Under the pieces are notes generated by a model. That model had not been told where the DNA came from. It saw only the letters and a program-made list of their open reading frames with translations, and did no database searches. From Ascidia mentula (lineage: Eukaryota > Chordata > Ascidiacea > Phlebobranchia > Ascidiidae), in NCBI GenBank assembly GCA_947561715.1, contig OX387200.1:15192501-15256500 (forward strand): a stretch of 64,000 nucleotides of DNA, written 5' to 3'. How positions within the stretch are numbered: position 1 is the first letter of the stretch; every line of letters starts with the position of its first letter. A program made the position numbers and the translations under genes. Of the stretch, positions 362-1,179 are shown piece after piece.

Positions 362-1179
362 TCACTTTTCACTGCCGACCGTATCTTGACTGGCATTACC
401 AGCTGAAACAAAACCTAAGTCAATGCTGTGACTGGCAGGAGAAGGTGGATAAGCCTCAAGAATGCATGGAATAGGATTTCCAGGAGAAAAGTTAATGGGA
501 ATAAGAATTGCAGTGGGGACTATATGACCAAAGTGTTGGAATATACTGCTTCCTTCTGCACTGCTGTTTACCTGGTCCTGCATGTTTTGAAATGGCAAAG
601 TTTGTGTATGCGGCAGTGGCTCCGGCATAGGCTCCATGCATTCAAATTCAAACTGCTCTATAGGCTTATTTATGTCATAATTACGAAGAAAATTGTGATG
701 CACATCTCCCAAGCTTTTAAAGTTTCTATCAATGTCACTAGTTTTTAGTGGTGTCTCTGAAGCCTCATCTTGACTGTTAAGCTTTTTCAATAATGAACTC
801 AGAACTTCTTCTAAATGCAGTGTGTACAGTTTTGCTCGATTGACCATGGTAACTCTGTTGTATTTAATTGCAGAAGATGACAATGTTCTGTTAATTGTAT
901 CAGGCTGACTTGTACCCTCTTTGGCTGCATTCTGTTGTGGCAAAACATCTCGCAAACGATTGTAGCATGCAACTACATTGTTTCTGTAAATACGCACATG
1001 TTATTCCCTTTAAAAACAAACTACACAATACATAAATTGGATTAAAACTCTACTGGATAGTCTGTACACGTGACACTTTTGCCAACATTTTCGCTATATA
1101 TAATACATCCACAGGGGTACCTGTGTCTGGCATACATTGCCCTTCTCATTTTTCGCCGAGGCGACGGAGTTTCGTCCAT
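362..1179 (-). CDS. Divergent basic helix-loop-helix protein, STRA8-like
   Basis: Two minus-strand exons, 1179-1121 and 983-362, join with a shared AG|A codon to give 226 residues. Residues about 8-20 are basic (RRKMRRAMYARHR). A first amphipathic helix (NNVVACYNRLRDVLP) follows, then a loop of about 25 residues and a second helix (VNRAKLYTLHLEEVLSSLLK). This order, the ARHR motif just before the first helix and the lysine/alanine start of the second helix resemble the bHLH of vertebrate STRA8, the retinoic-acid-induced factor that with MEIOSIN drives meiotic entry. The remainder is proline- and serine-rich with an acidic patch (EQFEFECMEPMPEP). The family call is by eye from remembered sequence; another atypical bHLH is possible. 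The gene is head-to-head with the RalGAP gene, and another same-strand gene begins about 110 bp downstream. No AATAAA is visible between the stop and that gene. Confidence 0.6.

What the first reader, a model, noticed from the sequence alone, without database searches (positions are those of the whole stretch)
362..1179. Possible invertebrate STRA8 homologue
Seen: a two-exon 226-residue protein with a basic stretch ending ARHR, an amphipathic helix with YNRLR, a loop and a second helix starting VNRAK. Known: vertebrate STRA8 has a bHLH with an ARHR and FNNLR arrangement and controls meiotic entry with MEIOSIN. Inference: this could be an invertebrate-chordate STRA8, which would bear on how old the STRA8 switch is.
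Basis: partly seen in the sequence, partly recalled or inferred. Interest (0 to 1): 0.72.

Follow-up and report, generated by a model that had tools for sequence, protein, structure and literature searches.

The report
Sea squirt relative of STRA8
A sea squirt gene appears to encode a small, divergent relative of STRA8, the protein that switches mammalian germ cells into meiosis; sea squirts had been reported to lack it, so its role there can now be tested.

Summary
On the minus strand, exons 1179-1121 and 983-362 splice (GT-AG, 137 nt) into 226 residues with ARHR, YNRLR and VNRAK. The genome matches Ascidia mentula, chromosome 4. Of 24,736 Pfam families the best match is bHLH_STRA8 (PF23175), but the native protein stays under its curated cut-off of 25 bits (16.6 whole, 20 for residues 1-95). 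Removing 18 residues of an unusually long loop gives one match over both helices: 29.8 bits, E 6.5e-7, against 16.8 for generic HLH. Shuffling helix 2 drops it to 14.9-16.4 bits, 5 of 5. Of 10 bHLH domains tested from the same genome, 0 match PF23175. The tail is not similar: no HMG match, FECME instead of LXCXE. I read it as a divergent tunicate STRA8 homologue; expression and function are untested. An amphioxus ortholog is already published, so chordate age is not new; a tunicate candidate is, as far as my searches show. No MEIOSIN-like bHLH+HMG gene turned up.

The parts
1121..1179 (-). Exon 1 (coding), MDETPSPRRKMRRAMYARH plus the first two bases of R20; basic region
   Evidence: residues 7-35 match PF23175 positions 14-42
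984..1120 (-). Intron, 137 nt, CAG|GTACCC ... TTTACAG|A
   Evidence: sequence only, no RNA evidence
362..983 (-). Exon 2 (coding) to TGA: helix 1, long loop, helix 2, net-acidic tail
   Evidence: open frame longer than those of all 2000 shuffles
938..982 (-). Helix 1, residues 21-35 (NNVVACYNRLRDVLP)
   Evidence: residues 1-40 vs recalled STRA8: 0 of 5000 shuffles reach the score
851..937 (-). Extended loop, residues 36-64; residues 41-58 (18 aa) were removed in the trimmed test
   Evidence: two stretches with the loop, one stretch of 29.8 bits without those 18 residues
773..850 (-). Helix 2, residues 65-90 (TMVNRAKLYTLHLEEVLSSLLKKLNS)
   Evidence: vs recalled STRA8 helix 2: 2 of 5000 shuffles of residues 41-226 and 6 of 5000 shuffles of residues 41-95 reach the score; shuffling it removes 13-15 bits; alone it has no Pfam match
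632..646 (-). FECME (residues 133-137), LXCXE-like but with F for L
   Evidence: [LIVMF]xCxE appears in 4.4% of 20000 shuffles, so weak

Best explanation
The gene encodes a divergent ascidian homologue of STRA8 that keeps the STRA8-type basic-helix-loop-helix but has no recognisable STRA8 C-terminal half. Shown by sequence: both helices resemble STRA8; the basic region ends in ARHR directly before helix 1 and lacks the spacing of ordinary bHLHs, as in STRA8. Inferred: it dimerises through the HLH and binds a non-E-box site, like the CNCCTCAG motif of mouse STRA8; its acidic tail acts on transcription; and it works in germ cells around meiotic entry. FECME could be a weakened pocket-protein site, but that is only a suggestion. 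The confidence below is for homology to STRA8; for the meiotic role I would say about 0.5.
For: Best of 24,736 Pfam families is PF23175 bHLH_STRA8 (E 0.0087 whole protein, 7.5e-4 for residues 1-95). With 18 loop residues removed: 29.8 bits, E 6.5e-7, over the curated cut-off of 25, residues 7-69 to profile 14-75 of 80; HLH PF00010 only 16.8 bits. Helix 2 shuffled: 14.9-16.4 bits in 5 of 5; whole domain shuffled: PF23175 in 0 of 5. Ten bHLH domains of the same genome (10 of the 44 matches): PF00010 51-68 bits in 10 of 10, PF23175 in 0 of 10. Recalled human STRA8 scores 171.6 bits on PF23175 over 80 of 80 positions, which checks the recalled domain; against it, residues 1-40 give z 7.5 (0 of 5000) and residues 41-226 give z 5.3 (2 of 5000). 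In alignment A1 the window protein and STRA8 share a three-column gap between basic region and helix 1 that the 8 other bHLHs do not have there. Mouse STRA8 binds CNCCTCAG, not an E-box (PMC9604137, passage). Exons matching MEIOC and the RB pocket are present in this genome.
Against: The native protein is under PF23175's cut-off, and the runner-up family, a chance-looking CMV_UL34, is only 2 to 6 times worse in E-value. Helix 2 alone has no Pfam match and exon 2 without exon 1 loses the STRA8 match. In a six-frame PF23175 search of the genome this locus was not among the 8 places listed, while other places, 7 of 8 with a stop, scored up to 21.3 bits. Tblastn of recalled STRA8's bHLH against the genome found nothing at E<=10, though the tool warns that an empty answer without a positive control shows nothing. 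The tail has no similarity to recalled STRA8's (1279 of 2000 shuffles score as high). No HMG match, no true LXCXE. No DR5 retinoic acid element with at most 1 mismatch between 1180 and 2446; other spacings were not tested. AlphaFold2 on exon 2 alone gave pLDDT 33.6, uninformative. No expression data, no second tunicate sequence.
Confidence: 0.78

Rival explanations
1. A tunicate-specific, fast-evolving bHLH from another family (for example a MEIOSIN, SOHLH or USF/MYC relative) that has come to resemble STRA8 in its basic region.
For: The match is modest in the native sequence and leans on the basic region (proteins 2 and 4); HLH PF00010 also matches the trimmed domain at 16.8 bits, E 0.0059. 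MEIOSIN could not be compared properly.
Against: STRA8 beats generic HLH by 13 bits in the trimmed domain; 0 of 10 other bHLH domains of the genome match PF23175; both helices resemble STRA8 separately.
Confidence: 0.13
2. A true STRA8 descendant that no longer controls meiosis: the shortened protein titrates other bHLH factors or works outside the germ line. (This overlaps with the best explanation on homology and differs in function.)
For: No HMG match, no true LXCXE, no recognisable MEIOSIN; mouse STRA8's HLH can interfere with other bHLHs in vitro (PMC9604137, passage). It lies 108 nt before the putative start of a THADA-like gene on the same strand, which could mean broad co-expression.
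Against: A basic region with STRA8's ARHR is kept, which an HLH-only titrator would not need (inference).
Confidence: 0.3
3. Artefact: two unrelated open frames joined by a false intron.
For: The donor CAG|GTACCC is not a strong consensus (judged by eye); no RNA was examined.
Against: Exon 1 supplies the basic region and exon 2 helix 1 in the register of PF23175 without a gap (residues 7-35 to profile 14-42); without exon 1 the STRA8 match is lost (protein 4); exon 2 is longer than chance open frames.
Confidence: 0.04

Closest known systems
Vertebrate STRA8 (PF23175 bHLH_STRA8)
   Same: ARHR directly before helix 1; F/YNxLR in helix 1; NxAK...LE..L..LLK in helix 2 (STRA8 letters recalled)
   Different: 226 aa here against 393 in mouse (a.a. 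1-393, PMC10600341 passage); loop about 18-19 residues longer; no HMG match; FECME mid-protein instead of a C-terminal LXCXE (mouse LKCLE)
Amphioxus Stra8 ortholog (Branchiostoma floridae, reported in PMC3769385, passage)
   Same: Invertebrate chordate STRA8 relative
MEIOSIN (bHLH + HMG)
   Same: Partner of STRA8 with a bHLH (PMC9604137, passage)
   Different: No HMG match here; I had no MEIOSIN profile to compare with, only an unverified recalled fragment that matched PF00010 at 25.1 bits
Generic bHLH (PF00010)
   Same: Helix-loop-helix layout
   Different: 13 bits worse than STRA8 in the trimmed domain; not listed for the native protein at E<=10

Membership tests
STRA8 | bHLH_STRA8 domain over Pfam's curated cut-off (25 bits) in the native sequence | tested here: not met
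   16.6 bits whole protein, 20 bits residues 1-95; 29.8 bits only after removing 18 loop residues
STRA8 | Basic region and both helices match STRA8 better than generic bHLH and than the other Pfam families | tested here: met
   no MEIOSIN-specific profile was compared
STRA8 | LXCXE RB-binding motif at the C-terminus, conserved in vertebrate homologs (PMC10600341, passage) | tested here: not met
   no LxCxE; FECME at 133-137
STRA8 | Putative HMG-type region (PMC9604137, passage) | tested here: not met
   no Pfam HMG match listed at E<=10; tail not similar to recalled STRA8 tail. Recalled human STRA8 itself also shows no HMG match in Pfam (E<=1), so this test is weak
STRA8 | Orthology by gene tree | not testable with these tools
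   I found no vertebrate, amphioxus or other tunicate STRA8 sequences in the collections offered
STRA8 | Germ-cell expression at meiotic entry, retinoic acid induction | not testable with these tools
   no RNA data; a DR5 scan with at most 1 mismatch found none in 1180-2446
STRA8 | MEIOSIN partner present in the genome | tested here: inconclusive
   of 44 listed bHLH and 28 listed HMG-box matches the nearest pair on one contig is 52 kb apart (lists at E<=0.01 and lower bounds); an unverified recalled MEIOSIN fragment found nothing, without a positive control
Canonical E-box bHLH | RER-like basic motif at the normal distance from helix 1 | tested here: not met
   A1: ARHR is followed by a 3-column gap relative to 8 bHLHs of the same genome; the meaning for E-box contact is from memory

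The most novel reading that the evidence does not exclude
Ascidians run a pared-down STRA8 switch: a short STRA8 homologue without an HMG region, without a true RB motif and without a recognisable MEIOSIN, acting as a homodimer or with another bHLH. It would show what the core of the meiotic switch was in the common ancestor of tunicates and vertebrates, or what can be lost from it.
Probability: 0.3. Interest if true: 0.75.

Novelty: new variant of a known kind. Interest (0 to 1): 0.58.

Why it matters
STRA8 has been called specific to vertebrates (PMC4729902, passage) and said to have no homologue in the Ciona intestinalis genome at present (PMC9776925, passage), while an amphioxus ortholog was reported in 2013 (PMC3769385, passage). 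If the ascidian gene is real, the gap in the sister group of vertebrates closes. The question of whether STRA8 controlled meiotic entry before vertebrates then becomes testable in animals that are easily bred and edited. The split of the domain between exons and its long loop may explain why simple searches missed it.

Tried and rejected
Pfam CMV_UL34 hit (E 0.0046-0.017, under its cut-off): taken as chance because of its low score; not tested further. NCBIfam: nothing, but that library serves prokaryotes. PDB phmmer: one hit, E 0.71. Hidden intron in the loop: from one candidate donor, the acceptors at 28 and 61 nt do not keep the frame; three at 105-111 nt would, but lie inside helix 2. Genomic PF23175 matches: L004-L010 carry one stop each, L011 none; I translated L004 and L011 only and both show the same repeat-like sequence, so that L005-L010 are copies is inferred. 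L003 (30% identity, one stop) rejected. AlphaFold2 on exon 2 alone: pLDDT 33.6, not used for a fold search. DR5 scan: 6 matches in the window against 13.3 expected, none in 1180-2446.

Loop removal was my choice after seeing the two-stretch match. It is not independent of the hypothesis; the helix-2 shuffles and the separate-helix test are the controls for that.

Full report
WHAT IS THERE. On the minus strand, ATG at 1179 opens exon 1 (1179-1121), a 137-nt GT-AG intron follows (1120-984), and exon 2 (983-362) ends in TGA; the product has 226 residues. ARHR, YNRLR and VNRAK are at residues 17-20, 27-31 and 67-71. The exon-2 frame is longer than the longest open frames of all 2000 shuffles.

WHERE. 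COX1 in contig C79 holds 16 AGA/AGG codons; as glycine (table 13, the ascidian mitochondrial code) they complete motifs such as LPGFG, while table 2 makes them stops; tables that read them as serine were not tried. The nine large contigs (27.92, 19.88, 23.17, 22.72, 22.34, 21.17, 19.87, 19.66, 15.45 Mb) and the mitochondrion (19,461 bases) match the table of the Ascidia mentula assembly, with 22.34 against 22.35 Mb for one (PMC11109543, passages). The held genome has 195.8 Mb in 79 contigs against 197.0 Mb in 95 scaffolds in print. The window is therefore very probably chromosome 4 of that species. The gene lies between a RALGAPA-like gene on the plus strand (start near 2447; the name is from memory) and, on the minus strand, a THADA gene (PF25151 over its cut-off and PF10350 at 26.9 bits against a cut-off of 27, in L045).

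IS IT STRA8? Pfam-A's best family for the whole protein is PF23175 bHLH_STRA8 (E 0.0087; E 7.5e-4 for residues 1-95), in two stretches and under the curated cut-off; the only other family listed, CMV_UL34, has E 0.017 and 0.0046 and looks like chance. The loop is about 18-19 residues longer than in STRA8. After deleting residues 41-58 the domain matches PF23175 in one stretch, 29.8 bits, E 6.5e-7, over the cut-off; PF00010 HLH reaches 16.8 bits. Basic region plus helix 1 alone gives 16.9 bits, helix 2 alone gives nothing, and exon 2 without exon 1 loses the STRA8 match. Controls: with helix 2 shuffled, 5 of 5 copies fall to 14.9-16.4 bits; of 5 wholly shuffled copies 0 match PF23175. Ten bHLH domains from the same genome (10 of the 44 PF00010 matches) match PF00010 at 51-68 bits, 10 of 10, and PF23175 0 of 10.

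PAIRWISE TEST. Against it the window domain scores 69 (0 of 2000 shuffles, z 7.7); the tail scores no better than shuffles (1279 of 2000 as high). Split in two, residues 1-40 match STRA8's first helix (0 of 5000 shuffles), and residues 41-226 match its second helix at MVNRAK...LLK (2 of 5000; with residues 41-95 alone 6 of 5000). In a 10-sequence alignment the two proteins share a three-column gap after ARHR that the 8 other bHLHs of the genome do not have there. Most of those 8 carry RER-like residues in the basic region (that these contact E-boxes is from memory). This fits mouse STRA8 binding CNCCTCAG rather than an E-box (PMC9604137, passage).

AGAINST. The native protein misses the cut-off. 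A six-frame PF23175 search of the genome, exon by exon, lists 8 other places (up to 21.3 bits, 7 of 8 with a stop) and not this gene. Tblastn of recalled STRA8's bHLH finds nothing, with no positive control. There is no HMG match, though recalled human STRA8 shows none either, and no LXCXE; FECME at 133-137 is of a type seen in 4.4% of shuffles, while mouse STRA8 binds RB through LKCLE at its C-terminus (PMC10600341, passages). No bHLH+HMG gene like MEIOSIN appeared: the nearest of 44 bHLH and 28 HMG matches are 52 kb apart (both lists are lower bounds). Exons matching MEIOC and the RB pocket are present. The structure prediction was uninformative.

HOW IT MAY WORK. Inferred, not shown: a nuclear factor that dimerises by its HLH, contacts a non-E-box site through ARHR, and activates or represses germ-line genes around meiotic entry. 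In mouse STRA8-MEIOSIN is an obligate heterodimer (PMC11273298, passage); in this ascidian the partner is unknown.

WHAT IS KNOWN. PMC4729902 (passage) calls STRA8 specific to vertebrates; PMC9776925 (passage) says it has no homologue in the Ciona intestinalis genome at present; PMC3769385 (passage) reports an amphioxus ortholog by reciprocal best BLAST (8e-09). PMC4870732 (passages) describes losses within teleosts. In the listings of searches, and in passages of the 11 papers I opened (one of them the Ascidia mentula genome note), I saw no description of a tunicate STRA8; most listed papers were not opened, and subscription papers and sequence databases were not searched, so automatic annotations may already exist.

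VERDICT. A divergent ascidian STRA8 homologue is the best reading (0.78). Because several features of vertebrate STRA8 were tested and not met, I call it a variant of the STRA8 kind rather than a proven member.

Noticed in passing
window:253-95 (-) and L045: A putative first coding exon (MAPHTKPVV...) starts 108 nt after the STRA8-like stop on the same strand, with a TTTTTAG acceptor-like site between them, and leads toward a THADA gene in L045. This spacing would fit a trans-spliced operon, but the link of this exon to THADA is inferred.
   Followed up: partly
window:2447 onward (+): RALGAPA-like gene ([27 protein letters not shown]...) divergent from the STRA8-like gene; name recalled, not tested.
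   Followed up: no
L004-L011: Places whose translation (CCCAFRRLSDAYRR... in L004 and L011) matches PF23175 at up to 21.3 bits, probably copies of one repeat; 7 of 8 carry a stop.
   Followed up: partly
window:37791-39479 (+): 562-codon open frame with several hydrophobic stretches that looks like a membrane receptor; no Pfam match at E<=0.01.
   Followed up: no
window:34714-35544 (+): 276-codon open frame with one weak C2H2 zinc finger (E 0.0091, under its cut-off).
   Followed up: no
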